Source: Mageeibacillus indolicus UPII9-5 (GTDB taxonomy: Bacteria > Bacillota > Clostridia > Saccharofermentanales > Fastidiosipilaceae). Taken from it: a stretch of 64,000 nucleotides of DNA. Of this stretch, positions 16,935-64,000 are shown in pieces (positions within the stretch are counted from its first letter, which is position 1; every line of letters starts with the position of its first letter). Under the pieces are notes generated by a model. That model saw only the letters and a program-made list of their open reading frames with translations, had not been told where the DNA came from and did not search any database. The DNA lies in the NCBI RefSeq assembly GCF_000025225.2, contig NC_013895.2:1488001-1552000 (forward strand), written 5' to 3'. Position numbers and translations under genes: made by a program.

Positions 16935-18785
16935 ATGCGCGAATTTTTACCTGATGTAGACAATGTAAAATTGCAGGCCGCTTTTGAAATAAAAAAAGCC
17001 TATGAAGACGGAGAGCTGAGTCTCGCAGCAGCCAAAGCCGAACTGAAAAACCGGGTTAAGGTGCTGCACCCCTACGAGGTGGCTTTGATCGAGCAGGAGT
17101 TGAAACCGGAAGTTGAGGATGAATGTCGCAAAGAAGATATTCAGGGTATGATCGCTCTTTTTGAGGATGTACTCGACCGCACCCGTCCGACTCTGCCGCT
17201 TAATCACCCGATACTCAACTATTATCGGGAAAATGATGTCATGCGTGATCTGCTGAAACAAGTGGAAGACTTACAGCAATATCCGGCAATCAAAAACCAA
17301 TGGTTGGAAATCTATGATCATATTGTCCGTTGGCGTTTGCATTTGCAGCGCAAACAAAATCAGCTCTATCCGGTTTTGGAGAAAAAAGGGTTCACCCGTC
17401 CGACCACGACTATGTGGACTTTGGACGACTTCATCAAAGATGAAATCTCGGCGGCTTATAATCTTCTCAAAAAGGCTGACGTTACTTCATTAAATGGGGG
17501 GAATGGTGAGCTAAGTCTGATGAGTGAGGCGGATGAAACTGCTTTTATTAAGCTACAGCCGACTTTGGTCGCCGACATCCTCGATTTGATACAAAAAGAG
17601 GAGACGGTGTTATATCCTACTTCACTCGCCTTGATCAGTTCGCAGGAGTTTGACGCGATGCGGCAGGGGGATTTTGAAATTGGTTTCGCCAATATAACGC
17701 CGGAACCGCTCAGTACGCCTTGGGAAGATGGCTTGCAAGCGGGCGGTGTGGGAGCCGGGGTTGGAACTGAGGGACAAGACGGACTTGGAACCGGGCTTAG
17801 AACCGGGCGGCCAAGTCCGAATGGCGTAGCGACATCGCAGGCGGCGGCCGAGCAATCCTCTAACCCAAACTCGGCCAAAGTACCGGGTGTAACAAGTAAT
17901 GCTTTGGCATCCGAAATAGCCGCCCTGCTCGGCAAATACGGTTATCAATCACCGGAGGCGACCGACTCACAACAGGAACTCAATGTGACCAACGGCAAAC
18001 TGACCTTGGAGCAAATTAATTTGATTTTTCAACATATGCCGGTTGATTTCTCTTATGTCGATGAAAATGAAATCGTCAAATTTTATAATGACTCCGCTCA
18101 TCGGGTTTTCCCGCGTTCGTCGAACGTAATCGGGCGTGATGTCAAAAATTGTCATCCGCGTAAAAGTGTCCACATCGTTGAAGAGATTATCTCCAAATTT
18201 CGCAGTGGTGAGCAGGATCAAGCTGAGTTTTGGATAAATAAGCCAGATATTTTTATTTATATTTTATATACTGCCGTGCGTGACCGTGACGGGCGTTTCC
18301 GTGGCGTTTTGGAGATGATGCAAGATTGCACGCATATTCGGTCTTTGACCGATTCGCAAACACTGCTGACTTGGGCCGCGCCAAAGGACGAGCAAGGCAG
18401 TCAGTCCGATGCCGCCGGCATTTCAATGAAATCTGATGCATCCAGCACCCACGGCAAGGCGGTTCAACCTGCCGCGCCGGCAGAATCTGATTCCACCAAA
18501 TTGGCCGGTTCAAACGCTCCGGCCGCGGAACGTATTGAAGCTGATCGTACTGGCGGGGAAGTAAAAATAACCCCGGAAACTTTTTTAAAAGATTTATTGG
18601 CCGTAGACCCCGAATTAAAGGCTTATCTCATCGAGCTTAATCCCAAATTTCGTGCCTTAAACACTCCATTAGCGCGAATCATGCTTCCCAAGGCCAGAGT
18701 ACAGGATATGAGCGAGCGCACCGGTATTCCACTCAGCGAATTAATCGGCAAATTGGAGGCGTTTTTTGTCAGGCACAAGCAGTGA
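16935..18785 (+). CDS. DUF438 / hemerythrin-like / PAS / DUF1858 protein
   Basis: Cytoplasmic multidomain protein of 616 residues, probably a redox or gas sensor. Order: DUF438 (residues about 1-75), a helical hemerythrin-like HHE domain (about 90-240) with histidines in NHPILNYYREND, YDHIVRWRLHL and elsewhere, a Gly/Ala/Pro-rich linker (about 262-318), a PAS domain (about 355-480, from LTLEQINLIFQHMPVDFSYV), a second linker, and a C-terminal DUF1858-like domain (about 540-612, from ITPETFLKDLLAVDPELKAY). This order is the one known for DUF438 proteins of anaerobes. A strong GAGGAGG precedes the ATG. It is monocistronic and diverges from the giant surface-protein gene. The inverted repeat in its leader may be its control site. 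Ligand and output are unknown. Confidence 0.88.
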   Translation: MREFLPDVDNVKLQAAFEIKKAYEDGELSLAAAKAELKNRVKVLHPYEVALIEQELKPEVEDECRKEDIQGMIALFEDVLDRTRPTLPLNHPILNYYRENDVMRDLLKQVEDLQQYPAIKNQWLEIYDHIVRWRLHLQRKQNQLYPVLEKKGFTRPTTTMWTLDDFIKDEISAAYNLLKKADVTSLNGGNGELSLMSEADETAFIKLQPTLVADILDLIQKEETVLYPTSLALISSQEFDAMRQGDFEIGFANITPEPLSTPWEDGLQAGGVGAGVGTEGQDGLGTGLRTGRPSPNGVATSQAAAEQSSNPNSAKVPGVTSNALASEIAALLGKYGYQSPEATDSQQELNVTNGKLTLEQINLIFQHMPVDFSYVDENEIVKFYNDSAHRVFPRSSNVIGRDVKNCHPRKSVHIVEEIISKFRSGEQDQAEFWINKPDIFIYILYTAVRDRDGRFRGVLEMMQDCTHIRSLTDSQTLLTWAAPKDEQGSQSDAAGISMKSDASSTHGKAVQPAAPAESDSTKLAGSNAPAAERIEADRTGGEVKITPETFLKDLLAVDPELKAYLIELNPKFRALNTPLARIMLPKARVQDMSERTGIPLSELIGKLEAFFVRHKQ

Positions 18786-19322
18786 ATCAGTCTCGCTCCG
18801 ATCCCAATGCTGATCCAATACTGATATTCAGATGTTCTTAATTATGGGGCGAGTTTTTACAGTAGGTCAGCTATCCTATGCCGGTTGGTTTGCTAACGGA
18901 TCGACGTCCTATATACGTAGGTTGCTGCTAGGCGGCTGGCAGAGTTGCTAACAACGGACAACATTTGTTGGCAAGTGTTTCCCGGCCGCCCCGGGGCCTG
19001 TTGCTGGCTACAAACTCGGCAGCCCGGGGCCTGCTGCGGGCTGCAAACTTGGCCGCCCGGGGCCTGCTGCGAGCTGCTAACTCGGCCGCTCGGGGCCTGC
19101 TGCGAGCTGCGAACTCGGCCGCTCGGGATCCGCCATGCCGAACCGCCAACGCCTATGGTAGCTCCATATGGCAGTGCCAACGACTATGGCAAAACTCCAA
19201 CACTGACTATGCCTATGTAAAACACTACGACGCCAAGTTGCAGCTGTTGTTTTTCGGAGACGGTGCGCTAAGTTGCCAGAAATTACAACTACCGCCGACT
19301 TAACCGCCAAGCAACCAACGAA
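18786..19322. other. 537-bp intergenic region, mostly repeat
   Basis: Lies between two genes that converge here (DUF438 protein on plus, ECF fusion on minus). It holds a GC-rich 33-bp tandem array (18992-19123). Open frames crossing it on both strands exist only because the array lacks stops; none has a ribosome site or a recognisable domain. No clear terminator hairpin was found. Confidence 0.6.
18992..19123. repeat. 33-bp tandem array, four copies
   Basis: Four 33-bp units starting at 18992, 19025, 19058 and 19091. Each begins cggggcctgYtgc and ends near ctcggccgc, with partial copies on both flanks. Units differ at several positions, so the array is not freshly amplified. Much more GC-rich than surrounding DNA. 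Confidence 0.9.
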
Positions 19323-31531: not shown

Positions 31532-34500
31532 CTACTTAGCCTTTAAACTCTTTCTAAGATAAATAGCCGCGCCGCCCAATATCAGAACGGCCAAGCCGGC
31601 CGACACTAGCCACCACGTCAGCGTCGCATAGCTGTGACCTTCTCGGGTCTGAACCTTGACGGGTTTCAAATCCAACTTTTTATTGTTTTCGGCCGTATCT
31701 TTTTTTACATTAGGATTCGGCAGATTGGCTAAATCTGCTGGTTTAAGGTCGAAATCATCTAAATAAACTGAGCCTTTTCCAGCTCCAATATCAACAATTA
31801 CATCATATTGAACAATTTTGATGCCGTCAAAAGCGGGTACGTCCAATTTGAATTGTTTCCAGTCACCAATACTACTAGCCGGTATATTGGTTTTAGTAAC
31901 ATGAATATTTCCTTGACTATCCGTCCGCTTTACGCCCAAACTTATCCCACTCCCATCATATATAGACACCTTATCCATTTTCATGAACACCGAAAGAATA
32001 TAGTCGGCATTAAAATCAAATTTATCTGGCTCAACGCAGTATTGATATATCGCTTGCGCATTGGAAAATTCCAGATTAATTTTAACCGCGTGTTCACCGC
32101 TATGAGCATCCGAACAAACTTCGTAATTTCTTTTCCCTTCTTCCGGTTTGCCCGGCCAAACGTCCCAGTCCAAAATCGAACCGTCAGGATTTAAATTTTC
32201 CAAACTTGGGTTGCGTAGAATACCGGCACCATTCTTACCGTCTTTGATTGATTTTTTCGGCAAGTTGGCCGCCTTTAAAGAAAAATCGTCCAAATAAATC
32301 TTACCGGAACCTTCCCCTATATCCACGATAACATCATATTGAACTATTTTTTTATCGCTTATGCCAGGGGCCTCGACTTTAAAATTAACCCAGCCGTTCG
32401 TGTCTGCCTGCTTAATTTTAGTATAAATATTGCTTTCTTTGCCGTCTTCAGTTTTCCTTTTAACACCAAGTGTCAGTTCGCTTACCTTTACATTTTCCAG
32501 CTTCGCCCATACAGAAGCTACATAGCTGGCATTGAAGTCAAATTTTGCATGATCTGTACAATATTGATACACCGCATGTTTATTTCCGGAGACCGGTTCA
32601 ATCAGCAAAGATCTGGTTCCACTATGATGTTGATCGGTTACCACCTTGGACATACGTACACCTTCTTTAGGATTTCCCGGCCAAACATCCCAATCACGTA
32701 TTGTACCGTCAGCATTAAGAATCTCTAAACCAGCATTGCGCAACAAGTCGCCATTCTGTGCTGATGAGACAGTTTTTTTCAGCTGTTTTACGGCAAAAGG
32801 CTGCTTTCCGATATCAGCCGGACGCAAGTCAAAATCATCCAAGTAAATTTTTCCTCTGCCACGGCCGATGTCCACAATAACATCATACTGAACTATATCC
32901 GTGTCACTGATGCCAGGGACGGGAATTTCGACCTTAAACCAATCGGCGTTTGCCGGACGTTTTATATCTAAATAATAATTATTTTCTTCGCCGGCAGCAT
33001 TCTTCCGTTTGACACCCAACGTCAATTCATCGACTTGTAGGTCTACCGTTTTGAGCCAAACTGAAGCGATATAGCTAGCATTGAAATCGAAAAATGAGGG
33101 ATTTATACAATACTGGTATACAGCATGTTTATTTTCGGCGACCGGCTCAATCAGTAAGGATCGTCGCCCGCTGTGTACCGGGTTCATTACCGATTTAAAC
33201 CGTCGTGTTCCTTCTTCCGGTTTGCCCGGCCATACATCCCAGTCGCGTACTGAACCATCAGGATTAATGATCTCTAAACCGGCGTTACGCAAGATTGAAT
33301 CGCTCAGGCGACTCTCTGTCCCTGCCGAATGGGCCTCTGAAGCATACTCATCATTACTAAAATGAATTTTATCAATCAAATCAGAAGCCTTTACTTTAGG
33401 TAAAGAAACTTTGCTTAATTTGAAATCATCTAAATATACTTTGCCCTTGCCCGCTGGCACATCAACAATCACATCATATTGTCCAATATTAGCTCCTTCG
33501 ATACCTGGGGCCGCCAATTTAATTTCTTTCCAACCAATGTCGCCGCTTTCTGCTACTTGAGTAGATAAGTTGTACTCATGCCCCAAAGCGTCTTTGCGTT
33601 TGATCCCTAGCGTGATTCTGCCTGAAGTCAGATTTTCGGCTTTCAACCAAACAGAAACCATGTAGCTTGCAGTAAAATCAAACGCCGAAGCGTCAACACA
33701 ATATTGGTATATGGCCTGCTTATTATCCGGTACCTGCTCAATCATAATGGCACGTTTCCCTCCATGGATCGGAGCGGTAACCGATTTATAACGTCTTTCA
33801 CCTTCGCTAGGATTCCCTGGCCACACATCCCAATCGCGCACCGAGCCGTCATCATTCAAAGTTTCCAGCCCCGGGTTACGCAAAACGTTGTCTTTATCAT
33901 GGCTCGACTCAGGTAGCTTCACGGATCGCTTAGGTGTATCAGATTTGGTTAAATCGAAATCGTCTAAATATATTTTTCCTGAACCTTTGCCTATATCTAC
34001 TATTACATCATACTGTTTAATTTGTTTGTCGGTTATCCCAGGTACATCAAGTTCCACCTTAGCCCAGCCTTTACCGGCAGTTTGATCGATATTTTTGTAA
34101 ACATTGTACTCTTTGCCATCATCTGCCCGCCGCTTTATGCCTAAACTCAGATTATCAGTCTTAACGTTTTCTAAATTCACCCAAACTGAGGCCGTGTAGC
34201 TTTCATTAAAATCGAATTTAGTTTTATCTATGCAATATTGATACACTGCATGATTGTTGCCTGCCACAGGCTCGATAAGTAGAGATCTTTTTCCGCTGTG
34301 TGCCTTCCCGGTAACTGATCTTGCTTGCTTAACGCCTTCTTGCGGGTTGCCCGGCCACACATCCCAATCCGTTATTGAGCCATCAGCGTTCAAATTTTCC
34401 AAGCTGGAGTTACGTAAAATCGCGCTTGACTGTGCCGGAGTAAAACTTTCTCGCGTAGCTAAAGTGACCGTATCCACATAAAACAAACTTGCCGTACCTT

Positions 34501-35542
34501 CTGTGGTGCAATGGAACAGAATCTCGTCACGCGGAATATTTGCCGGAATTTTAACTGTTATTTCTTGCCAAGATGTTTGCGTTGCCGCAACAGTATCTGA
34601 TTCGATGTTTTGGTCGGGCACGCCTGCTTTCTTAATTTCCGCCCGTAATTTGCAGGAACCGGAATTTCCGCCACTTTTGACCCAAGCAGACAAATATAAA
34701 TCTTTGTCAGTCTGTATTATTTCTCGGTTTAACCACCATCCACTGGCTTGGAAAATATCGCGGGGGCCTCTGAGTAAGGCAGAATTACTCCCGTCGTGTT
34801 TTTCCACCGTAGTGACCTCAAACTCACCGCCCCAAGCTTCCTTTCCTTTCTCAAAACGGGGATTACGGATAAGGCTGAACCCAGTCAGGTCAGAGCAGTA
34901 AAAATACGCGTCATCAAAATAAATAGCGCCTTTGTTGCCAGGAGAAACCGTAAATTTAACTGCATGGCGCAAAACCTTGCTTGAAGCATCTCCATCAACT
35001 GAAACTTTTTGCCAACCTCTTTGCGGCCTAGGATGAGCAGTAATTGTGCCGAGCGGAGAATCTGGGCGTTCGAGGTGAATCGTAACCTTATCGGCATCCT
35101 CTTCCATGCTTAGATACACCCACATTCCAGCGGTGAAAGAGGCCTGTCGATTGTAAGTCAAGTTTTCCGGCGTGATCGTATAAGCAAAAGCCTCCTTGTC
35201 TGCTCCAGCTGCCACCATAAAGCTTTTTTCTCCGCTGTGTGTAAATCCAACTTCGGTGTTAATAGTTACCAGAGTTTCATTTCTGCCCCACCCACTGGCA
35301 TCTTTTTCCATTCCCGGATTTTCCAAAAGATTAAATCCTTTGGCCTCAACTATCGCTTCGGCAGGTAACGAACCGCCATGTATCGAGCTCCCACGTGGCA
35401 AATCACCGGCCACCTCATCAGCTGTCGCCGACCCGGAAAAAGCAATGCAATTCGTCTGTTGCAATGGCAATGCTGTCAAAAGCATAATCGCACTTAAACC
35501 CCAAGCCGACAAGACGCTAAGATGCTTAATTAATTTATTCAC
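31532..35542 (-). CDS. Membrane-anchored protein with seven carbohydrate-binding-like modules
   Basis: Exported 1336-residue protein, probably a surface glycan-binding component. A signal peptide (LSVLSAWGLSAIMLLTALPL) is followed by two divergent modules (about 70-370) and five close repeats of about 175 residues. Each repeat opens LRNxxLExLNxDGSxxDWDV, contains AVYQYC and FDFNASYxxSVWxK, and closes QYDVIVDIGxGxGKxYLDDF. This is a CBM4/9-like jelly-roll pattern. The WDVWPG marks are at about 32160, 32687, 33235, 33827 and 34360 on the plus strand. The end is GHSYATLTWWLVSAGLAVLI and a basic tail RKSLKAK: a membrane anchor, not LPxTG. GTG start with GGAGGG 7 nt upstream. Last gene of the locus; no catalytic domain seen. 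Confidence 0.85.
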   Translation of the reverse strand: MNKLIKHLSVLSAWGLSAIMLLTALPLQQTNCIAFSGSATADEVAGDLPRGSSIHGGSLPAEAIVEAKGFNLLENPGMEKDASGWGRNETLVTINTEVGFTHSGEKSFMVAAGADKEAFAYTITPENLTYNRQASFTAGMWVYLSMEEDADKVTIHLERPDSPLGTITAHPRPQRGWQKVSVDGDASSKVLRHAVKFTVSPGNKGAIYFDDAYFYCSDLTGFSLIRNPRFEKGKEAWGGEFEVTTVEKHDGSNSALLRGPRDIFQASGWWLNREIIQTDKDLYLSAWVKSGGNSGSCKLRAEIKKAGVPDQNIESDTVAATQTSWQEITVKIPANIPRDEILFHCTTEGTASLFYVDTVTLATRESFTPAQSSAILRNSSLENLNADGSITDWDVWPGNPQEGVKQARSVTGKAHSGKRSLLIEPVAGNNHAVYQYCIDKTKFDFNESYTASVWVNLENVKTDNLSLGIKRRADDGKEYNVYKNIDQTAGKGWAKVELDVPGITDKQIKQYDVIVDIGKGSGKIYLDDFDLTKSDTPKRSVKLPESSHDKDNVLRNPGLETLNDDGSVRDWDVWPGNPSEGERRYKSVTAPIHGGKRAIMIEQVPDNKQAIYQYCVDASAFDFTASYMVSVWLKAENLTSGRITLGIKRKDALGHEYNLSTQVAESGDIGWKEIKLAAPGIEGANIGQYDVIVDVPAGKGKVYLDDFKLSKVSLPKVKASDLIDKIHFSNDEYASEAHSAGTESRLSDSILRNAGLEIINPDGSVRDWDVWPGKPEEGTRRFKSVMNPVHSGRRSLLIEPVAENKHAVYQYCINPSFFDFNASYIASVWLKTVDLQVDELTLGVKRKNAAGEENNYYLDIKRPANADWFKVEIPVPGISDTDIVQYDVIVDIGRGRGKIYLDDFDLRPADIGKQPFAVKQLKKTVSSAQNGDLLRNAGLEILNADGTIRDWDVWPGNPKEGVRMSKVVTDQHHSGTRSLLIEPVSGNKHAVYQYCTDHAKFDFNASYVASVWAKLENVKVSELTLGVKRKTEDGKESNIYTKIKQADTNGWVNFKVEAPGISDKKIVQYDVIVDIGEGSGKIYLDDFSLKAANLPKKSIKDGKNGAGILRNPSLENLNPDGSILDWDVWPGKPEEGKRNYEVCSDAHSGEHAVKINLEFSNAQAIYQYCVEPDKFDFNADYILSVFMKMDKVSIYDGSGISLGVKRTDSQGNIHVTKTNIPASSIGDWKQFKLDVPAFDGIKIVQYDVIVDIGAGKGSVYLDDFDLKPADLANLPNPNVKKDTAENNKKLDLKPVKVQTREGHSYATLTWWLVSAGLAVLILGGAAIYLRKSLKAK

Positions 35543-55858: not shown

Positions 55859-56638
55859 TCACCGATTTCGAGTGCCTTCCCGCAGAGATGACGGTGAAAT
55901 GTCAAGATACTTGCGAAAAACGGCGGAAAAATATTTATAGTCACTGAACCCGGTAAGTTCGGCTATTTCGTAGACGCGCATATCTGTGTTGCGCAGCAAG
56001 TGCAAGGCTACGCTGATACGGTAACGATTCAGGTAATCATTAACTGTGTAGCCGGTATCTTTTTTGAAAAGGCGGTTAATATATGTGTCTGAGATATTGA
56101 ACTCTCGGCATAGATCATTTAAACCGCACGGTTTCATATAATTCTTGGAAATATACAAAATAATTTGCTTGACCAGTTTATTTCGCGCTTCATGTTCAAC
56201 CGGCAGCAAATCCGGGATCGGGTTAGTGTCTACGGCCGCCAACTTCATCTCCGCTGCCCGTTGTAGGTCAAGACCGGACACAATTTTGGCCAGCAAATCC
56301 GAGAGTTCCTGATGGTCGATCGGCTTGAGCAAATAATCGGCGACCCCTAGCTTAATTGCTTGGCGAGCATATTCAAATTCAGAATAACCGGTCAGGATAA
56401 TCGCGGCAAAGCAGCGATTTTCTTCCCGTGCCAAGCGTAGCATTTCCACGCCGCTCAAGTGGGGCATACGAATGTCGGTAACTACTATATCGGGGTTTTC
56501 GCTTCTGATTAAATCTAAGCCTTCTTTCCCGTTGCCAGCTTCACCGACAACTATGCAGTTGTGCAAAGCCCAGTTTTGCGTAAACACTATGCCCTTGCGA
56601 ATAATTTTTTCGTCTTCCACCACAATAACTTTGTACAT
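55859..56638 (-). CDS. Response regulator with AraC output domain (YesN type)
   Basis: 259 residues. Receiver domain: acidic VVEDE near the start, phospho-acceptor Asp in DIVVTDIRMPHLSG near residue 54, LLKPID near 104. AraC double helix-turn-helix from about residue 155 (GLNDLCREFNISDTYINRLF, RVYEIAELTGFSDYKYFSAV). Compact compared with many YesN proteins (often 350-550), as the linker is short. The gene follows its kinase by 37 bp. AraC-type regulators paired with YesM kinases often serve adjacent ABC transporter genes. Confidence 0.93.
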   Translation of the reverse strand: MYKVIVVEDEKIIRKGIVFTQNWALHNCIVVGEAGNGKEGLDLIRSENPDIVVTDIRMPHLSGVEMLRLAREENRCFAAIILTGYSEFEYARQAIKLGVADYLLKPIDHQELSDLLAKIVSGLDLQRAAEMKLAAVDTNPIPDLLPVEHEARNKLVKQIILYISKNYMKPCGLNDLCREFNISDTYINRLFKKDTGYTVNDYLNRYRISVALHLLRNTDMRVYEIAELTGFSDYKYFSAVFRKYLDISPSSLREGTRNR

Positions 56639-56675: not shown

Positions 56676-58787
56676 TCAATCGGACAGAGGTAAATATATG
56701 GTCACTGTTGTGCCTTTGCCGGGCGATGAGTTTACTTGAACCCGTCCACGCCGGCCGTAACGCAAATCAACTGTCTTAAACACATTATAAAGCCCGAAGG
56801 ACAAATGTTTGCCATCATTTTTTCCGGGGGGGACGGTTTTTTCTTGCGCTGATGCTGGCGAGGTTGCCTGGCGCATGTCTGCCACGTTGTCTGGCCGGAT
56901 ATCCTGCCGCGTGTCAGCTCCGGAGGCTGGCCGGCTGTCCGCTCCGGGAGCTGGCCGACTGTCCGCTCCGGGAGCTGGACGTATGTCCGGCTGCGTATTT
57001 ATCCCGGTTTCCGGTCGGGGTTCTGTCCGCATATTCGTCTCGGCGTCCTGCTGCGTGTCCGCTCTGGGAGCTAACCGGATGTCCGGTGACGTATCCCACC
57101 CGGTTTCCGGCCGCGTATCCCTCTGAATATCCAGCGAACAGATCTGAGCAAGTTTCGCCGGCGAAATGCCGGGACCATTATCTTCCACCCTTATTATAAG
57201 ATATTCAGATTCAACCATTACAGAAATATTTATCAGCACTCGGTCAACCTCATCAATCGAATAAGTAATCGCGTTTTCCACCAACGGCTGAATCAATAAT
57301 TTAGGAATTTCGATATTCGACAGCTCGGCCGGCAACTCTATGCGATAATCCAGCCGCTCATCGAAACGCATTTTTTGCAATTGCAGATAAGCTTCAATAT
57401 AACCCATGTCGGTAGAAAGACTGACCTCCGCCAACCCATAATTGACCGAATAGCGCAAAAGTCTAGCTAAACACCCCATCATCACCACCGCATTTGCCGG
57501 GTCAAAATCTATTTCATACCTTATAGTTTCCAAAGTATTAAATAAAAAATGCGGGCTAAATTTGGCCTCAAGATCTTTGATCTCCATCGCCCGTTTTACT
57601 TCCGCCAAAGCACAATTGCGCTCAAGAAGGGTCTTGATCTCGCCGGCCATCGCATTATACGCATTAAACAAAGTTTGAAATTCCGGATAAGTTTCCGCGG
57701 TAATATGGTAGGCATCTCCATCACCGGACTTACCGCCCAGGTGCAAAGCCAAATTCAATTCGCGAATCGGTTCGGTAAGTTTCTGGGACAGGCGGCGGGA
57801 AATAAAGAAGGTAAGTAAGCTTAATAAAATCTCCAATATGGTCATCAGCAACAATCCGACCTTTAAATTACCGGCGTATTCGGCAATATCCGCATAGCTG
57901 AGAATTTGCAATCGAGTATCGGCCAAAGTAAAACTGCTGCGCACGGTAGTCAAATGCCGCCAAATACGGTTGCCAGACTGCTGGTGGGCAAGGCGCGCTT
58001 TACCGATCGAATCTGTTGCCGATTGATCCGAGGAAAAGATCACATTGTCGAAACGGTCGGTAAGCAGGAGATCGACTTTGGCGGCGCGGACTTGCTCGAT
58101 CACCGTACCGGCCAAAGGTTCCAAAATCAGCTCTCCTTGCCCACAAGGGAAACGCAACAATAGCAGGCCAGGTCTTGCCGCGTAGCCATCCGTTTCGCGG
58201 CGTTCGACCGGAAGTGAGGCGTGCAGAGAACGCGGCACCGCTTGCACGGTCACGGGCAAATTTTCCCTATAATAAGTGCCAGAAAAGTTTTCGGCCTTGC
58301 GTGCGATATCCGCCCCGGTTAAACCTTCGGGGAATTTTCGATGCACCGCCTCAAACAAATTCGTAGCGATAACCTGCTTGTGTCCATCCAAAATATAAAA
58401 ATTACAGTCGAGTCCACTGTTCCGCCGAAAATCATACATCAGATTATATAGCCGATGCTCCGCTTCCCGCTCAGCCTTGCTTCCGGGCGCTGCTAAAGCG
58501 TATTGGGAAATATTCGGAGCTATCTTGGCCGCCGCTACCTTCCCAGCTGTTACCTGAGCGGTTGCCGCCCGGGTCAAGGCCGCAATCGACGCTTGATTAC
58601 TGATTTGTAAGCGGCTTTGCAACTCATTGAAGTAAAAGAAAGCACTGACGGAAAAATAGATCAGCATGGCCGCAGCAATCGCCGCGCTCACATACTTGAG
58701 GAATAGTCGCTGCACCTCCTGCCCGAACGTGGGACGAAGGGGAGCCGGGAATGAGGCTGACGTGTGTTTTTGTCGCATAGTTATCAT
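56676..58787 (-). CDS. Sensor histidine kinase (YesM type) with a repeat insertion in the ATP lid
   Basis: 703-residue membrane kinase. One helix at about 32-55, an extracellular sensor region (about 56-300), a second helix (about 308-326), HAMP, then the His_kinase domain with phospho-acceptor His in SPHFLFNTLETIRYE near residue 414. HATPase_c: N box LVENAITYSID near 507, G1 VEDNGPGIS near 540, G2 GLYNVFKTVDLRYG near 667, final GKGTTVTIYLPL. Between G1 and G2 are about 100 extra residues (about 552-650) of Arg/Pro/Asp-rich repeats such as RPAPGADS, coded by 24-bp DNA repeats. Starts at 58787 and 58778 are both possible; neither has a good ribosome site. The first 80 bp lie inside direct-repeat copy 1. 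Confidence 0.92.
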   Translation of the reverse strand: MITMRQKHTSASFPAPLRPTFGQEVQRLFLKYVSAAIAAAMLIYFSVSAFFYFNELQSRLQISNQASIAALTRAATAQVTAGKVAAAKIAPNISQYALAAPGSKAEREAEHRLYNLMYDFRRNSGLDCNFYILDGHKQVIATNLFEAVHRKFPEGLTGADIARKAENFSGTYYRENLPVTVQAVPRSLHASLPVERRETDGYAARPGLLLLRFPCGQGELILEPLAGTVIEQVRAAKVDLLLTDRFDNVIFSSDQSATDSIGKARLAHQQSGNRIWRHLTTVRSSFTLADTRLQILSYADIAEYAGNLKVGLLLMTILEILLSLLTFFISRRLSQKLTEPIRELNLALHLGGKSGDGDAYHITAETYPEFQTLFNAYNAMAGEIKTLLERNCALAEVKRAMEIKDLEAKFSPHFLFNTLETIRYEIDFDPANAVVMMGCLARLLRYSVNYGLAEVSLSTDMGYIEAYLQLQKMRFDERLDYRIELPAELSNIEIPKLLIQPLVENAITYSIDEVDRVLINISVMVESEYLIIRVEDNGPGISPAKLAQICSLDIQRDTRPETGWDTSPDIRLAPRADTQQDAETNMRTEPRPETGINTQPDIRPAPGADSRPAPGADSRPASGADTRQDIRPDNVADMRQATSPASAQEKTVPPGKNDGKHLSFGLYNVFKTVDLRYGRRGRVQVNSSPGKGTTVTIYLPLSD

Positions 58788-58982
58788 TAGCGGTGTGAGT
58801 CATCAGAGAGCCAGAATCATCGAACGCAACCGCGAACTCTCCTGCTGCCCGCTCCATCCTTTCCGTACGAATATATTATCATATGCTTGTACTCAAATAC
58901 TGATTTCTTTACGTCCTGATAACTTAAAGAATAACAGCAAAGATATGACAGATGTCAAGGTCAAAACCGTCAAAAAAGTGGC
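58705..58982. repeat. Long direct repeat flanking the cassette, copy 1
   Basis: 278 bp, about 95% identical to 62008-62289 by eye (roughly 14 substitutions plus one 4-bp indel near 58889). It covers the kinase 5' end, the intergenic DNA and the last 90 bp of an ABC permease gene. Here the kinase side is intact and the permease side is truncated. Homology starts at agtcgctg and ends at gtggc. Confidence 0.93.
58893..58982 (-). pseudogene. 3' remnant of the iron-type ABC permease gene
   Basis: Read on the minus strand this gives FLTVLTLTSVISLLLFFKLS, GRKEISI and a stop. It matches the C-terminus of the intact permease at 62200-63864 almost residue for residue. It has no start and ends at the repeat boundary. 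Confidence 0.88.
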
Positions 58983-58987
58983 TCCAA

Positions 58988-59095
58988 ACTGGATGTGTAA
59001 TCGCCGAAGAAGCGGACAAAAGGCAGAGAATTCAGAAACAGATCAAGGAGGTGAAACAGTGGATGGATCACCTTTTGGGAATGCACGTAGTTTGA
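58988..59095 (+). pseudogene. 3' remnant of an unidentified gene at the cassette's left edge
   Basis: A frame with no start, opening right after the repeat boundary: TGCVIAEEADKRQRIQKQIK, then EVKQWMDHLLGMHVV and TGA at 59093-59095. The amphipathic, charged helix looks like the end of a real soluble protein, perhaps a regulator, but no family is assignable from 35 residues. The same DNA carries AAGGAGGTGA (59044-59053) ahead of a GTG, which could serve a 20-codon frame. I think this is chance. Confidence 0.4.
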
Positions 59096-59118
59096 ATCGA
59101 TATTCAAACCTTTTATTG

Positions 59119-59134
59119 ATTTGATTAATCAAAT
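59119..59134. promoter_or_regulatory. Perfect 16-bp palindrome upstream of the cassette promoter
   Basis: atttgattaatcaaat, ending 2 bp before the -35 box. Its symmetry and position fit a regulator site. Regulator unknown. Confidence 0.5.
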
Positions 59135-59136
59135 GC

Positions 59137-59165
59137 TTGACTGTTAGAAATTACAGCAGTACAAT
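59137..59165 (+). promoter_or_regulatory. Sigma-A-type promoter of the secreted-protein/ABC cassette
   Basis: TTGACT (59137-59142), 17-bp spacer, TACAAT (59160-59165): one mismatch in each box. Expected start about 59172, leaving a 57-nt leader before the ATG at 59229. Confidence 0.75.
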
Positions 59166-59176
59166 AAGTTCAGTTA

Positions 59177-59207
59177 TACAACATGTTCAAGAGTACAACA
59201 TGTTCAA
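59177..59207. promoter_or_regulatory. Direct repeat in the cassette leader (operator candidate)
   Basis: tacaacatgttcaa at 59177-59190 and again at 59194-59207, a 17-bp period, each copy holding the palindrome acatgt. It lies just after the expected transcription start and before GGAAAGGAG. Confidence 0.5.
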
Positions 59208-59228
59208 AATGCGGAAAGGAGATTCATT

Positions 59229-59627
59229 ATGAAAAGGCTTATGAAGTACTCAGCTGTAGCTTTAGCTCTGATGTTATTTATCGGTGGAGCAACATTTGTT
59301 TCTGCTAGAAACATAGCTGAATATGACGTGGTGATGCCAAGATTTGGTGGTGCCACTTATACTGACACACTTACCAAAACAAATCAAAGTCGTGCGGTAA
59401 ATAACAATGGTTCTATTGGTGGTGGTTACAAAATGAACTGTGCGGTTTATTGGGGAAGTGACAAGATTACTGAGGATTACTCATTAACATCCGGATCACG
59501 CATTCTGATTCCTTACAATGAAGCATATAACTTTGTTGATAGCAATGTAAAGCTTGGCATGTGGACTGGTTTAACGACTTATGTAAAAGTTGCAGCAAGT
59601 GGTTCTTGGAGCCCTGATGAGAATTAA
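59229..59627 (+). CDS. Small secreted protein, DUF2712-like
   Basis: 132-residue exported protein. Signal peptide MKRLMKYSAVALALMLFIGG, likely cleavage at FVSA-RN, leaving about 105 residues that are Gly/Ser/Thr/Asn-rich with an alternating beta pattern and only one Cys. It ends GSWSPDEN, which resembles the end of DUF2712-type secreted proteins I recall beside ABC transporter genes in Firmicutes. Bacteriocin, toxin or signal are possible roles, none shown. Strong GGAAAGGAG before the ATG and its own promoter. A terminator after it separates it from the ABC genes. Base composition is more AT-rich than that of flanking genes. Confidence 0.72.
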   Translation: MKRLMKYSAVALALMLFIGGATFVSARNIAEYDVVMPRFGGATYTDTLTKTNQSRAVNNNGSIGGGYKMNCAVYWGSDKITEDYSLTSGSRILIPYNEAYNFVDSNVKLGMWTGLTTYVKVAASGSWSPDEN

Positions 59628-59649
59628 TCACGGGCAAGCAATAGTACAT

Positions 59650-59679
59650 AAAGGGGGAGGCTTCCACCTTCCCCTTTTT
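59650..59679 (+). terminator. Intrinsic terminator between the secreted-protein gene and the ABC genes
   Basis: Stem aaagggg.agg / cctt.ccccttt (59650-59660 with 59667-59677), a 6-nt loop and a run of five T. It should let only part of the transcription reach the ABC genes, giving much secreted protein and little transporter. Confidence 0.75.
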
Positions 59680-59708
59680 AATTCCATATTGTTTTTTGGG
59701 GGAATTAC

Positions 59709-60482
59709 ATGAAAAACAAGAAGTTGATGTTTAAGCATTTGTTTGGATTTAGAATGTTGCTCAGTATCATTCTTTGCTTATTATCAATGAGCATTGTTTC
59801 TTTCCAGAATGCCGGGCAAGAATATTTCAAAAATAAGACTAGTTTTATAGCCTTTAGTGATGGTTACTTTAACTCTTTACTTCCGTTTATGGTTTTCATT
59901 GCTTGCGCTCTTCCGGCAGCTGACATATACGCATCTCACAAGTCATCTGGGATGTTACGGTATTTCATCACTAGAACAGGGAGGAAACGTTATTTCATAG
60001 AAATTTTTCTCATCAATGCCATATGTGCCTTTGTAGCATTGTTTATAGCATTCTCTATTTGGGTGCTTATTTCAGTTCTGTTGTGTACAGGGAAGCCTAA
60101 TTTAGATCTGGAACTGAACCATACGCAACAATATACTTACGCCTCTCTCTATCTGATTTCACCTACTATGTATGTATTGATGGCCATTCTACACGGGTCA
60201 ATCTTTAGTGCCGTATTTGCAACACTGGCTCTAGCGTTGACTTTTTACGTGCCTAAAAAATTTGTTGCTTGGGTTTCACCCGCCTTAATTTCCATCTTTT
60301 TATCATTGGTGGCCATGTTTTTACACCTGACTCACTTTGAGCCCAGTGTGATGTTTGCATTTACCAAGGTTGGGCATCTTAATGCAGTTTTAGTGTGGTG
60401 CTCTTGGTTAATCATCATTTTAGCTAGCGTCATTCTCGCTTGGCTAAAATTCATGACAACCAAGAACATTCAAGGAGAGTAA
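59709..60482 (+). CDS. ABC-2-like permease A of the cassette
   Basis: 257-residue membrane protein with six hydrophobic segments (for example MLLSIILCLLSMSIVSF, INAICAFVALFIAFSIWVLI). The pattern is that of ABC-2-type or lantibiotic-immunity-type permeases. Lys-rich N-terminus (MKNKKLMFKHLFGFR) and a GGGGGAA ribosome site. Sits 82 bp after the secreted-protein gene, past the terminator. Export of, or protection from, the secreted protein is inferred from linkage. Confidence 0.75.
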   Translation: MKNKKLMFKHLFGFRMLLSIILCLLSMSIVSFQNAGQEYFKNKTSFIAFSDGYFNSLLPFMVFIACALPAADIYASHKSSGMLRYFITRTGRKRYFIEIFLINAICAFVALFIAFSIWVLISVLLCTGKPNLDLELNHTQQYTYASLYLISPTMYVLMAILHGSIFSAVFATLALALTFYVPKKFVAWVSPALISIFLSLVAMFLHLTHFEPSVMFAFTKVGHLNAVLVWCSWLIIILASVILAWLKFMTTKNIQGE

Positions 60483-60486
60483 GATC

Positions 60487-61272
60487 ATGAAAAGCAAAAA
60501 GGTATTTTCATTCCTGATCTATAGCTTCACCGGGTTAGTTTTGTTATTTAGCTTAAGCCAAGTTGTTGGAATTATAAGCAAGTATGGTAAATTCTCATAT
60601 GGCGAATTAACTGCCTATTTTTTAAATGATAGCTATACAGGATTTTTCACTTTTCCCTTTTGCTTGGGTGCTTTGCTAGTTAATCAAACGCAAAAAGAGT
60701 CAAATCTTTATTTTATTATGTCGAGGTATAAAAGCCGTATAGTATATATTCTTAAACGAATAAGTAATTGCTCGATTATTGCTTTGAAATACTATGCGAT
60801 CATATTGTTTTTGTCAATCTTATCGTGTATTAGCAATTCACTGTTTAATAGCAAAACATCTGATGCATTTCAAGAGCTAGCGAAAACTTTTACAACCAAG
60901 CCTGCCACTATCTCTAAAAGTGTTTTTTCAACCGCTCTACAGAGTGGACTTGCTTATCTGATGGTGATAATAATTTTAGTCTTATTCTTCCTGTTACTAA
61001 CGCAGACCAAATTAAATGGCGCAGCTATTTTTGCTGTTTTCAGTGTAACCATCATGATAAACGCTTTTGCTTGTCTTGGCTTTTTTGGCAATATTTTTAG
61101 TAATGCCAATCTCTTTGCTCTCCTACTTCCTCTACAGAGCACACATCATTTCAGTCTAGAAGTACTGATAGGTATATGTGGAATCTTACTACTGCTAAGC
61201 CTTAACATCTTGCTAATTTGTAAGCGCGACTTGGTTCTACCAAAGTCTAACAAAAATTATGAAACGGAGTGA
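60487..61272 (+). CDS. ABC-2-like permease B of the cassette
   Basis: 261-residue protein with six hydrophobic segments, no close sequence resemblance to permease A. GGAGAG 7 nt before the ATG; 4 bp after the previous stop. The two permeases probably form a heterodimer. Rich in AT-ending codons, unlike the dcw genes. Confidence 0.75.
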   Translation: MKSKKVFSFLIYSFTGLVLLFSLSQVVGIISKYGKFSYGELTAYFLNDSYTGFFTFPFCLGALLVNQTQKESNLYFIMSRYKSRIVYILKRISNCSIIALKYYAIILFLSILSCISNSLFNSKTSDAFQELAKTFTTKPATISKSVFSTALQSGLAYLMVIIILVLFFLLLTQTKLNGAAIFAVFSVTIMINAFACLGFFGNIFSNANLFALLLPLQSTHHFSLEVLIGICGILLLLSLNILLICKRDLVLPKSNKNYETE

Positions 61273-61275
61273 ACG

Positions 61276-61914
61276 ATGGATAATTTTGCAATTGAGCTCA
61301 AGGGATTATCTAAGAACTATGGGAAAAGAAACATTTTTGAAAACACCTCATATGCTTTTGAGACTGGGAAAAGCTACGGAATCGTTGGTCCTAATGGATC
61401 CGGTAAAAGCGTACTTTTTAAACTGATTGCCGGTTTAACACTCCCAACATTAGGTAAAATTTTTGTTGAAGGAAAACAAATAGCAGTATTGGGTTCTTTG
61501 CCAGAGAGTATTGGCTACATAATTGAGAATCCCGGTTTTTTACCTGAACTCTCCGGTTTTAAAAATTTAGAGATATTATCTGGGATTAGAGGCTTAGTTG
61601 GTGCCAGTGATATTAAGCAAATGCTTGAAAAAGTTGGCTTGTCTGAATCCATGGATATAAAAACCCAAAATTATTCGTTGGGAATGTTGCAGCGTTTGGC
61701 GTTAGCACAAGCCTTATTGGAGCACCCTCGTATTTTACTTCTTGATGAACCCTTTAATAGCATCGATAAGGAAGGCGTTGCTGAATTGCGCCAAGTAATT
61801 CTCAACTATCAAAAAGAATATGATGCCACAATTTTGCTTACCTCTCATAACGAGGATGATATCCGTTTTTTCAATAGTAAAATTGTGTATATTCGTGATC
61901 ATCAGCTTGTTTAA
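61276..61914 (+). CDS. ABC transporter ATPase of the cassette
   Basis: 212-residue ATP-binding subunit, complete. Walker A GPNGSGKSVLFK near residue 40, Q-loop region YIIENPGFLPELSGFKNL, signature YSLGMLQRLALAQAL (Ser-Leu-Gly-Met in place of SGGQ, as in several exporter and immunity ATPases), Walker B RILLLDEPFNSID, H-loop LLTSHNEDD. Starts 3 bp after permease B. Together these three genes make a full transporter. Confidence 0.93.
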   Translation: MDNFAIELKGLSKNYGKRNIFENTSYAFETGKSYGIVGPNGSGKSVLFKLIAGLTLPTLGKIFVEGKQIAVLGSLPESIGYIIENPGFLPELSGFKNLEILSGIRGLVGASDIKQMLEKVGLSESMDIKTQNYSLGMLQRLALAQALLEHPRILLLDEPFNSIDKEGVAELRQVILNYQKEYDATILLTSHNEDDIRFFNSKIVYIRDHQLV

Positions 61915-61949
61915 CGATATAAGCTGAATTATTCATCTCTTTCCCACAT

Positions 61950-62090
61950 CTACTTCGCTCCGCCGGAGGATTTTTTGTTACCTGATTCTCTTCCCACTAG
62001 GAGAAACAGTCGCTGGACCTCCTGCCCGAACGTGGGCCGAAGGGGAGCTGGGAATGAGGCTGACGTGTGTTTTTGTCGCATAGTTTTCAT
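61950..62090 (-). pseudogene. 5' remnant of the histidine kinase gene
   Basis: From the ATG at 62090 or 62081 the frame gives MRQKHTSASFPAPLRPTFGQ, EVQRLF, identical to the N-terminus of the intact kinase. It then leaves homology at the repeat edge (62008), continues LLVGRESGNKKSSGGAK and stops at 61950. Not functional as a kinase. Confidence 0.88.
61957..61976 (+). terminator. Weak terminator after the cassette
   Basis: ctcc-gcc-ggag mini-hairpin followed by ga and six T, 43 bp after the ATPase stop. The stem is short, so efficiency is doubtful. Confidence 0.35.
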
Positions 62091-62289
62091 TAGCGGCGTG
62101 AGTCATCAGAGAGTCAGAATCATCGAACGCGACCGCGAACGCCCCTGTTGCCCGCTCCATCCTTTCCGTACGAACATATTATCATATGCTTATGTATGCT
62201 CAAATACTGATTTCTTTACGTCCTGATAACTTAAAGAATAACAGCAAAGATATGACAGATGTCAAGGTCAAGACCGTCGAAAAAGCGGC
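62008..62289. repeat. Long direct repeat flanking the cassette, copy 2
   Basis: 282-bp partner of 58705-58982. Here the permease end is intact and the kinase side is truncated, the reverse of copy 1. Carries a 4-bp insertion near 62194 relative to copy 1. Confidence 0.93.
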
Positions 62290-63864
62290 GGCATTGCCAT
62301 AATTACCCCTGATGACCTCAGTATAAATAGCGACGGTGAGCGTTTTAGTACCGCTAGTGTACAAAATAACGGACGAGCTTAACTCACTGATTACCGTAAT
62401 CCAACTCATCAAGGCCCCGGAAATAACTCCCGGCAGCATCATCGGCAAGGTAACATCCGCAAAAGCTTTGAACTCCCCGGATCCCAAACTGATTGCCGCT
62501 TCTTCCATGCTTGGGCTGATCTGCGCTATAATCGCCGAACTTGAACGAATAGTGTAAGCCAACCGCCGCATCATTAAGCTGATGATTATAATTATTGCCG
62601 TGCCGCTAATCATGATCGGCGGCGCATTGAACGCGAAAATAAAAGAAATACCCAAAACTGAGCCTGGAATAATATACGGCAACATGGATATCGTATCCAA
62701 AGCCCCCGTCAACGCATTACGCTTCCGCTTAGCCATATATGCGACTAAAACACCGAAAACGATTATGAGAATTATCGCAGCCAAGCCAAACAAATAAGTG
62801 TTTCTTATAACATAAGCCTGCCCTGAGCCCAAAATATTTCGATAGCTTTGCAAAGAAAAACCGGGCAAAAACACCTGACCGCCGCGATTCTTCAAAAAAG
62901 AAGTGACGATAACGACAATCTGCGGCAAGATGGCGATAAAAGTCAGCAAGTACACGAACAAGTGAGTCACGCCATTCGAGATTCCGTGCAATTTACGTTG
63001 CTGAATCGGCCGCAAAGCCGTCATCGAATAGGAAAAAATGTTACCGGCAATCTTTTGAGCAATAAATATTACCCCGACAACAATAATTGCAATCACACAC
63101 AAAGCTGCGGCAAAGCCATCATCGCCGCCGACCTCACTCATAAACGAGTTATAAATCAAAACCGGCATGGTTTTATAACCTTCACCAATGAGCATAGGCG
63201 TACCGAAATCGGCAAATACTCGAGCAAACACCAACAACGCTCCGGCTAACAAGCTGGGCATGACCAAGGGAACGATTACCGTAAAGAACCGTTTCAGGCC
63301 GCTACTTCCTAGACTTTCCGCCGCCTCACTGAGCGAACTGTCCATGTTTTTCATAGCCCCCGAAATGTACATGAACACTAGCGGGAATGACTGCATTGAC
63401 ATGACCAAAACGATGCCAGCGAACCCATAAATACCCCCGTAATGTATGTGAAAAGCACTGCTCAGCAAACGCGTAATTATCCCGTTACGCCCGAGCAACT
63501 GAATCCAAGCATAAGCCCCGATGAACGGCGGCGAAAGATAAGCGATGATGCAAAGAATGTTGATCAAACTGATATTCTTTATCTTATACATCCTTGTCAG
63601 ATAAGCCATAGGCAAACCAATGAGCACAGAAATTATCGTAGCCGTCAACGTTACTTTAAAGCTGTGCAAAATATTCACCCAGTAGAACTTTTTGGCAAAA
63701 AAGCGCGCGAAGTTACTTAAGGTGACCTGCGCCGTCCCCTGATCGACAAAACTCTTGTAGAGAATCAAAACCAACGGATACAGCAAAAAAATCAGAAAAA
63801 CAAGCAGAACTGCCAGAGAAACCCAGATCCAAACTCCACTTGTTCCTTTTTCACGCTTCTTCAT
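62200..63864 (-). CDS. Iron(III)-type ABC transporter permease, duplicated (FbpB-like)
   Basis: About 554-residue permease of the FbpB/SfuB class, in which two six-helix permease units are fused. Both EAA loops are visible: LSEAAESLGSSGLKRFFTVI and MEEAAISLGSGEFKAFADVT. The ATG at 63864 has GGAGGAGG about 8 nt upstream and overlaps the ATPase stop by 14 bp. Class members import Fe3+, thiamine, polyamines or phosphonates; the substrate is not decided here. Its last 90 bp lie in direct-repeat copy 2. The kinase/regulator pair probably followed it directly before the cassette arrived. Confidence 0.9.
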   Translation of the reverse strand: MKKREKGTSGVWIWVSLAVLLVFLIFLLYPLVLILYKSFVDQGTAQVTLSNFARFFAKKFYWVNILHSFKVTLTATIISVLIGLPMAYLTRMYKIKNISLINILCIIAYLSPPFIGAYAWIQLLGRNGIITRLLSSAFHIHYGGIYGFAGIVLVMSMQSFPLVFMYISGAMKNMDSSLSEAAESLGSSGLKRFFTVIVPLVMPSLLAGALLVFARVFADFGTPMLIGEGYKTMPVLIYNSFMSEVGGDDGFAAALCVIAIIVVGVIFIAQKIAGNIFSYSMTALRPIQQRKLHGISNGVTHLFVYLLTFIAILPQIVVIVTSFLKNRGGQVFLPGFSLQSYRNILGSGQAYVIRNTYLFGLAAIILIIVFGVLVAYMAKRKRNALTGALDTISMLPYIIPGSVLGISFIFAFNAPPIMISGTAIIIIISLMMRRLAYTIRSSSAIIAQISPSMEEAAISLGSGEFKAFADVTLPMMLPGVISGALMSWITVISELSSSVILYTSGTKTLTVAIYTEVIRGNYGNAAAFSTVLTLTSVISLLLFFKLSGRKEISI

Positions 63865-64000
63865 GCTCTGCCTCCTCCGGTCCGCCAACCTTAAGCACGC
63901 AAGTTTCCATTACCACGCTCTTTTCGGTTACCGGATCAAAAACATTAATCTTGTCGCCTTTAATTTTCAAACTTAGATGTTCGCCTTTAACCAGACGCTG
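63851..64000 (-). CDS. ABC transporter ATPase, C-terminal end (gene runs off the window)
   Basis: The last 49 codons, QRLVKGEHLSLKIKGDKINV then FDPVTEKSVVMETCVLKVGG and stop at 63851. This is the TOBE-type end of an FbpC/PotA-like ATPase. It overlaps the permease start, so the two are translationally coupled. Confidence 0.82.
   Translation of the reverse strand, partial: QRLVKGEHLSLKIKGDKINVFDPVTEKSVVMETCVLKVGGPEEAEHEEA

What the first reader, a model, noticed from the sequence alone, without database searches (positions are those of the whole stretch)
58705..62289. Secreted-protein/ABC cassette inside a duplicated operon junction
Two direct repeats of about 280 bp flank a 3-kb plus-strand cassette. 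Each repeat contains the same joint: the 3' end of an iron-type permease gene, intergenic DNA and the 5' end of a histidine kinase gene. In copy 1 the kinase is whole and the permease is a stub; in copy 2 the reverse. So permease and kinase were once adjacent, and the cassette entered with a long duplication of the joint. That geometry fits single-crossover (Campbell-type) integration of a circle carrying the joint, or an ectopic duplication, rather than transposition (no transposase, no short target duplication). About 5% divergence means it is not recent, yet homologous excision should still be possible and would restore the ancestral operon.
Basis: partly seen in the sequence, partly recalled or inferred. 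Interest (0 to 1): 0.85.

Follow-up and report, generated by a model that had tools for sequence, protein, structure and literature searches.

The report
Foreign ABC cassette between duplicated joints
A foreign-looking four-gene secretion and ABC-transporter cassette sits inside a bacterial transporter and sensor operon, flanked by two copies of the old gene joint so that neither host gene was lost; this fits a known but poorly understood way for genes to move without a transposase.

Summary
Copies 58698-58982 and 62001-62289 align over 289 columns with 16 substitutions and two 2-base gaps, and a whole-genome search finds no third copy. In 10 of 17 related loci examined the permease is followed by a kinase, without the cassette, so the genes were once neighbours. 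The 3,018-bp insert has 37.2% G+C, against 45.4% for the window, and the lowest of 122 overlapping 3-kb steps lies on it. Its secreted-protein/permease/permease/ATPase operon recurs in other genomes and on a 10-kb mobilizable Priestia plasmid. Simulated recombination between the copies leaves both host genes whole and removes 3,303-3,307 bp.

Best reading: insertion with long target duplication, the pattern named for restriction-modification genes in Helicobacter. Whether a circle integrated by one crossover or a fragment was captured at a staggered break is undecided: substitution patterns in the two stubs point opposite ways. None of 18 related cassette spans shows this geometry. No cassette-free strain of the species could be examined.

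The parts
58698..58982 (.). Joint copy 1: first 30 kinase codons (58698-58787; the whole kinase continues to 56676 on -), 105-bp spacer, permease 3' stub of 29 codons plus stop (58893-58982)
62001..62289 (.). Joint copy 2: kinase 5' stub of 30 codons (62001-62090), 109-bp spacer, last 29 codons plus stop of the whole permease (62200-62289)
58983..62000 (+). 3,018-bp insert, 37.2% G+C, single copy in the genome
59137..59165 (+). Promoter-like site TTGACT-17-TACAAT upstream of the operon (1 found in the region, 1.5 expected from shuffles, so weak as statistics)
59229..59627 (+). 132-aa secreted-type protein (signal peptide judged by eye); no family match above cutoff
59709..60482 (+). mem1, 257-aa membrane protein, permease by context
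60487..61272 (+). mem2, 261-aa membrane protein, second permease by context
61276..61914 (+). 212-aa ABC ATPase (PF00005); best NCBIfam hit TIGR03740 lantibiotic-protection ATPase, 152.5 bits, below its 309.75 cutoff
61953..61968 (+). Terminator-like stem-loop followed by a T run near the insert's right end (one of 2 such sites found in 61850-62400, 0.3 expected)
56676..58787 (-). Whole histidine kinase (703 aa by the first ATG), host gene
62200..63888 (-). Whole two-domain ABC permease (up to 562 aa), host gene
55859..56638 (-). Response regulator with AraC-type HTH, next gene after the kinase

Best explanation
A foreign, self-contained secreted-protein/ABC operon of about 3.0 kb was inserted between the permease and the kinase of a transporter/two-component operon, and a 285-289 bp stretch spanning the host joint was duplicated around it. 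Because that stretch holds the 3' end of one gene and the 5' end of the other, both host genes stayed whole. [quoted passage not shown] Shown: the two copies, which halves are whole, adjacency of the two genes in relatives, the insert's odd composition, and that recombination on paper restores both genes. Inferred: that insertion and duplication were one event; that the cassette came by horizontal transfer, perhaps from plasmid DNA; that homologous recombination, for instance through the 73-bp identical block, could excise a 3.30-kb circle. Payload function (inferred): a secreted antagonistic or signalling polypeptide with a LanFEG-like export or self-protection transporter, which would favour retention. 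As to route, integration of a circle by one crossover and capture at a staggered break are about equally likely; the first is also listed as a rival, so its odds overlap with these.
For: Repeat alignment; two copies only in the genome. Permease followed by kinase in 10 of 17 relative loci, 9 of these also with the response regulator; no match to the secreted protein or the two membrane proteins in any of the 17 at E<=1e-4. Lowest G+C among 122 3-kb steps. Secreted protein found in 1 of 12 family genomes, the own one, at E<=0.01 (8 of the 12 are at least 90% complete). The same operon occurs elsewhere: order secreted/mem1/mem2/ATPase in L082, L105, L106, L107 and L091, secreted/mem1/ATPase/mem2 in L089, and on Priestia plasmids, among them the 9,971-bp MOBQ plasmid pHJT3_2. 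Excision simulated at the six longest identical blocks: kinase 703 aa and permease 562 aa without internal stops, spacer 105 or 109 bp. Two replacements at conserved residues in the permease stub.
Against: No cassette-free genome of this species or genus was available, so the empty site is inferred at gene level only. 7 of 17 relative loci have no kinase relative beside the permease. Kinase matches in relatives lie mostly outside the duplicated first 30 codons. 5 of 6 kinase-part differences are synonymous, unlike a stub drifting in place (P 0.005-0.009 if all changes fell in the stub, 0.04-0.07 if shared with the whole copy). None of 18 related cassette spans shows the same geometry, so long duplication is not a habit of this cassette family.
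Confidence: 0.7

Rival explanations
1. Campbell-type transfer: a circle carrying the cassette and a joint from a diverged strain (an excised circle, or a plasmid that had captured the joint) integrated by one homologous crossover; the copies differ because they are two strain alleles.
For: 5 of 6 kinase-part differences are synonymous, as between two working alleles. The cassette family occurs on plasmids. The copies share a 73-bp identical block.
Against: 2 of 3 permease-part differences are replacements at positions conserved in all 17 relatives, unlikely in a working donor allele (P 0.028 under an assumed 90% synonymous). It needs an earlier event that put the joint on the circle. None of the four operon genes matches a replication or mobilisation family.
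Confidence: 0.4
2. The joint was first tandemly duplicated inside the host, and the cassette later entered at the new kinase/permease junction between the copies.
For: Gives the same geometry; short tandem duplications are common (established knowledge).
Against: Needs two independent events at one junction, to within the resolution of the alignment ends. No example of tandem joints without the cassette was met, but the 17 relative loci were compared at gene level only.
Confidence: 0.12
3. Site-specific integration by a recombinase acting in trans, with the repeats as long attachment sequences, as seems to occur for related cassettes downstream of scpB in genomes G093 and G120.
For: In G120 a related cassette whose ends share about 20 bp occupies a site that is empty in G147; G093 has two in tandem there.
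Against: There the shared core is about 20 bp and the 147-bp repeat is borne by the cassette and missing from the empty site. Here the repeat is made of two host gene ends. None of the four operon genes matches a recombinase.
Confidence: 0.08

Closest known systems
Insertion with long target duplication (Nobusato et al. 2000, restriction-modification genes of Helicobacter pylori; not read, seen as cited in passages of PMC1643837, PMC3874152 and PMC3031569)
   Same: Gene cassette between long direct repeats of target sequence; [quoted passage not shown]
   Different: Payload is a secreted-protein/ABC operon, not restriction-modification; another bacterial phylum; the target is an operon joint; no same-species empty site was available.
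Transposed genes flanked by host-derived direct repeats in Arabidopsis (PMC2869330, abstract and passages)
   Same: Direct repeats like the target site flank the moved gene; insertion of a circle by homology is proposed there.
   Different: Plant nuclear genome and machinery.
CDI gene element of Burkholderia thailandensis (PMC6350997, passages)
   Same: Antagonism genes between direct repeats, with a circular intermediate shown.
   Different: The repeats are insertion sequences with a transposase, and the element is about 210 kb.
Lantibiotic-protection ABC ATPases (TIGR03740; LanFEG type) and the lactococcin 972 cluster
   Same: Small ATPase with membrane proteins beside a secreted polypeptide; the lactococcin 972 cluster stabilises plasmids by post-segregational killing (PMC4055356, abstract and passages).
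   Different: ATPase below the cutoffs of TIGR03740 (152.5 of 309.75 bits) and of the lactococcin 972 ABC model TIGR03608 (96.7 of 254.85 bits); the secreted protein matches no bacteriocin model; no activity shown.

Membership tests
Insertion with long target duplication | Long direct repeats of target sequence at both ends of the insert | tested here: met
   289 columns, 16 substitutions, two gaps; two copies only in the genome
Insertion with long target duplication | Related genome with one copy of the target and no insert | tested here: inconclusive
   Adjacency at gene level in 10 of 17 relative loci; no DNA-level empty site in the same species available
Insertion with long target duplication | No transposase or site-specific recombinase in the insert | tested here: met
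   None of the four operon genes matches one; three of them have no family match above cutoff, and small open frames in the insert were not scanned
Insertion with long target duplication | Payload is a restriction-modification system (usual, not strictly defining) | tested here: not met
   Secreted protein, two membrane proteins and an ABC ATPase
Classical transposon | Terminal inverted repeats and a short target duplication | tested here: not met
   No inverted pair of 16 nt or more lies at both ends of the insert; shorter ones were not sought; the duplication is 285-289 bp
Lantibiotic-protection ABC ATPase (TIGR03740) | ATPase above the curated score | tested here: not met
   152.5 bits against 309.75
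Lactococcin 972 bacteriocin | Secreted protein matches a bacteriocin family model | tested here: not met
   No such match for the window protein (Pfam; NCBIfam) or the relatives scanned; the only Pfam hit is DUF4179, below cutoff
Campbell-type integration | A circle carrying one joint, seen free or in another strain | not testable with these tools
   Needs reads or other strains

The most novel reading that the evidence does not exclude
Secreted-antagonist/ABC cassettes can behave like restriction-modification units: they enter chromosomes without a transposase through long target duplication, are held by post-segregational killing, and leave again by recombination between the duplicated joints.
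Probability: 0.1. Interest if true: 0.65.

Novelty: new member of a known kind. Interest (0 to 1): 0.36.

Why it matters
To my knowledge the way genes insert with long target duplications is still unexplained. This locus is a clear single case with a payload other than restriction-modification, in which both host genes are preserved and each stub can be compared with its whole partner. Strain comparison or reads across the joint could decide between circle integration and break capture.

Tried and rejected
A second case of the same geometry. I compared the two flanks of 15 related spans (some were cut by contig ends, and in L076, L077 and L083 only part of the operon was recognised) and scanned three more loci, L105-L107: 18 spans. 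Four of the 15 gave flank matches. L078: its 147-bp repeat occurs only twice in G093, but comparison with G120 and G147 shows that it is borne by the cassette and missing from the empty site. L083: dispersed repeat; G195 has 102 matches to the joined query that contains it. L080: tandem duplication of the whole cassette. L075: 56 and 34 nt at 82%, with five matches in G177. None is a duplicated host joint.

The open stretch 58961-59092, which reads like the 3' end of another gene, was searched as a 32- or 44-residue peptide: only itself in the own genome, none in plasmids or phages. In 398 phylum genomes 55 had matches at per-genome E<=1, the own genome included, the best other at 0.009; I take these as chance. 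It does not resemble the end of the Priestia relaxase by eye.

Viral contigs: no relative of the ATPase, mem1 or the secreted protein by the tool's peptide patterns, and no exact match to a 50-base piece of the joint. mem1 in plasmids: 3 Melissococcus records at 26% identity; in phages: one weak hit at E 0.01. The ATPase in plasmids reached the 5000-record limit and says nothing specific. Structure of the secreted protein from its single sequence: mean pLDDT 43, not searched further. Its family profile against solved structures: best E 0.087, cortactin, taken as chance. Weak DUF4179 matches of the secreted proteins are below cutoff. The 92-column run without substitution has P 0.026 under uniform placement; gene conversion is possible and not argued. 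The codon test between routes was inconclusive.
Full report
Setting. The window is bases 1488001-1552000 of a single-contig genome of 1,809,746 bases. The size matches Mageeibacillus indolicus UPII9-5 as I recall it; no call names the organism, and only shows that the genus is in the taxonomy. No other genome of the same genus was among the 58 relatives or the 12 family genomes.

Observation. The two direct repeats are real: 58698-58982 and 62001-62289, 16 substitutions and two 2-base gaps in 289 columns, and no third copy in the genome. On the minus strand each reads: end of the permease (29 codons plus stop), spacer, start of the kinase (30 codons). Copy 1 adjoins the whole kinase and ends in a permease stub; copy 2 adjoins the whole permease and ends in a kinase stub. 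One search lists six families of direct repeats of at least 45 nt in the window: two are this pair, and the other four lie at 31.7-34.4 kb and 18.99-19.15 kb and look like repeats inside a coding frame or a tandem array.

Ancestral adjacency. I examined 17 loci with a permease relative of at least 41% identity: three from two unnamed family members (G005 twice, G008) and the 14 returned from named genomes. The many weaker permease matches were not examined. In 10 of 17 a kinase relative follows on the same strand, 8 to 673 bp downstream, and in nine of these the response regulator follows. No match to the cassette's secreted or membrane proteins was found in any of the 17. Seven have no kinase relative there. 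The closest permease, of Erysipelothrix inopinata, is 68% identical. Kinase matches cover mostly the middle and C-terminal parts, so the duplicated first 30 codons cannot be checked this way.

Insert. It is 3,018 bp with 37.2% G+C against 45.4% for the window; the 3-kb step on it is the lowest of 122. It holds four plus-strand genes: a 132-aa secreted-type protein, two membrane proteins and an ABC ATPase. Only the ATPase has an accepted family match (PF00005); its best NCBIfam hit, the lantibiotic-protection ATPase TIGR03740, is below cutoff. A promoter-like site lies upstream (not more than shuffles give) and a terminator-like hairpin near the end. Kinase and cassette diverge; cassette and permease converge.

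Relatives of the insert. The secreted protein is found in 3 of 398 phylum genomes at E<=0.01 (own, G352, G517) and in 1 of 12 family genomes (own). Its relative from L082 finds 5 of 188 genomes of the order, the own included. mem1 matches in 16 of 291 class genomes, the own included. The order secreted/mem1/mem2/ATPase recurs in L082, L105, L106, L107 and L091; L089 has secreted/mem1/ATPase/mem2. In the five with the same order, two genes upstream look by eye like a response regulator and a kinase; no family search was run on them. In plasmids, four Priestia records carry a relative of the L091 secreted protein, and I opened three. In the 9,971-bp MOBQ plasmid pHJT3_2 it follows the relaxase gene on the same strand, with a permease next and the ATPase across the record start. 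In the two larger plasmids it lies beside, but on the other strand from, the permease, a second protein and the ATPase. So this gene set does occur on mobilizable DNA. The window's own secreted protein was not searched in plasmids; its mem1 and ATPase were.

What the substitutions say. In the kinase part 5 of 6 differences are synonymous; the sixth changes codon 2 (Ile in the whole gene, Lys in the stub). If all changes fell in the stub this has P 0.005-0.009; if the whole copy also took synonymous changes, 0.04-0.07. That leans towards two alleles that both worked, hence transfer from another strain. In the permease part the stub has Thr for Ala and Leu for Ser, where all 17 relatives have Ala and a small residue (Ser, Ala or Gly); that leans towards decay after truncation (P 0.028 for two working alleles under an assumed 90% synonymous). 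With nine coding differences neither route is excluded.

Excision. Joining the flanks at each of the six longest identical blocks gives the whole kinase and the whole permease with a spacer of 105 or 109 bp, and removes 3,307 or 3,303 bp. The longest identical block is 73 bp. Whether it happens in cells is untested.

Is it a habit of the cassette family? No sign of it in 18 related spans. The tempting case, L078, is something else: related cassettes were added downstream of scpB at a site with a core of about 20 bp, one in G120 and two in tandem in G093, while G147 has that site empty and its own cassette elsewhere (L074); each cassette there brings its own repeat of about 147 bp.

Known kind. 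'Insertion with long target duplication' was described by Nobusato et al. 2000 for restriction-modification genes (not read; cited in passages of PMC1643837). A review passage gives duplications in the order of 100 bp (PMC3874152), and another paper says that such forms resemble direct-repeat forms expected to amplify by unequal crossing-over (PMC3031569 passages). The library lists 19 papers with the phrase 'insertion with long target'; in the passages I read from four of them that concern bacteria the payload is restriction-modification. I did not read the rest, and make no claim that this is the first other payload. [quoted passage not shown] That is a reason why a secreted-antagonist cassette might be retained, if this one is such a cassette, which is not shown. 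Transformation can make duplications bordered by repeats in pneumococcus, but of about 100 to 900 kb (PMC3784515, abstract).

Verdict. A sound observation with a mostly sound interpretation. The product is well explained as insertion with long target duplication; the route is open. It is a new member of a known kind, of moderate interest because it is clean, testable and carries a different payload.

Noticed in passing
L104/L078 (G093), L102 (G120), L103 (G147): Related ABC cassettes accrete downstream of the scpA-scpB genes: one in G120, two in tandem in G093, none at that site in G147. Ends share a core of about 20 bp (GATTTTGGCAATAAAAA) and each cassette brings a repeat of about 147 bp; a pair that looks by eye like a PIN toxin and its antitoxin lies in the insert. 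The recombinase is unknown.
   Followed up: partly
window 58961-59092: The left end of the insert reads as the last 30 or so codons of a charged protein with a stop, perhaps the broken 3' end of a donor gene; no convincing relative found.
   Followed up: partly
window 59178-59207: Two copies of ACAACATGTTCAA, 17 bp start to start, between the promoter-like site and the secreted-protein gene, possibly an operator (read from the sequence).
   Followed up: no
window 56870-57073: The kinase carries a degenerate repeat of 24-bp units (about residues 570-640) after its first HATPase_c stretch, probably an expansion inside the ATPase domain.
   Followed up: no
window 31532-35542: 1336-aa open frame on the minus strand with four to five internal repeats spaced 525-591 bp.
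   Followed up: no
window 18990-19154: Tandem 33-bp G+C-rich repeats between the open frames that end at 18785 (+) and 19323 (-).
   Followed up: no
L082, L105, L106, L107, L091: In these relatives the operon is preceded by genes that look by eye like a response regulator and a histidine kinase; the window cassette has none of its own but lies next to a host kinase.
   Followed up: no
L083 (G195): A dispersed repeat of about 173 bp; G195 has 102 matches to the query that contains it, a likely miniature mobile element.
   Followed up: no
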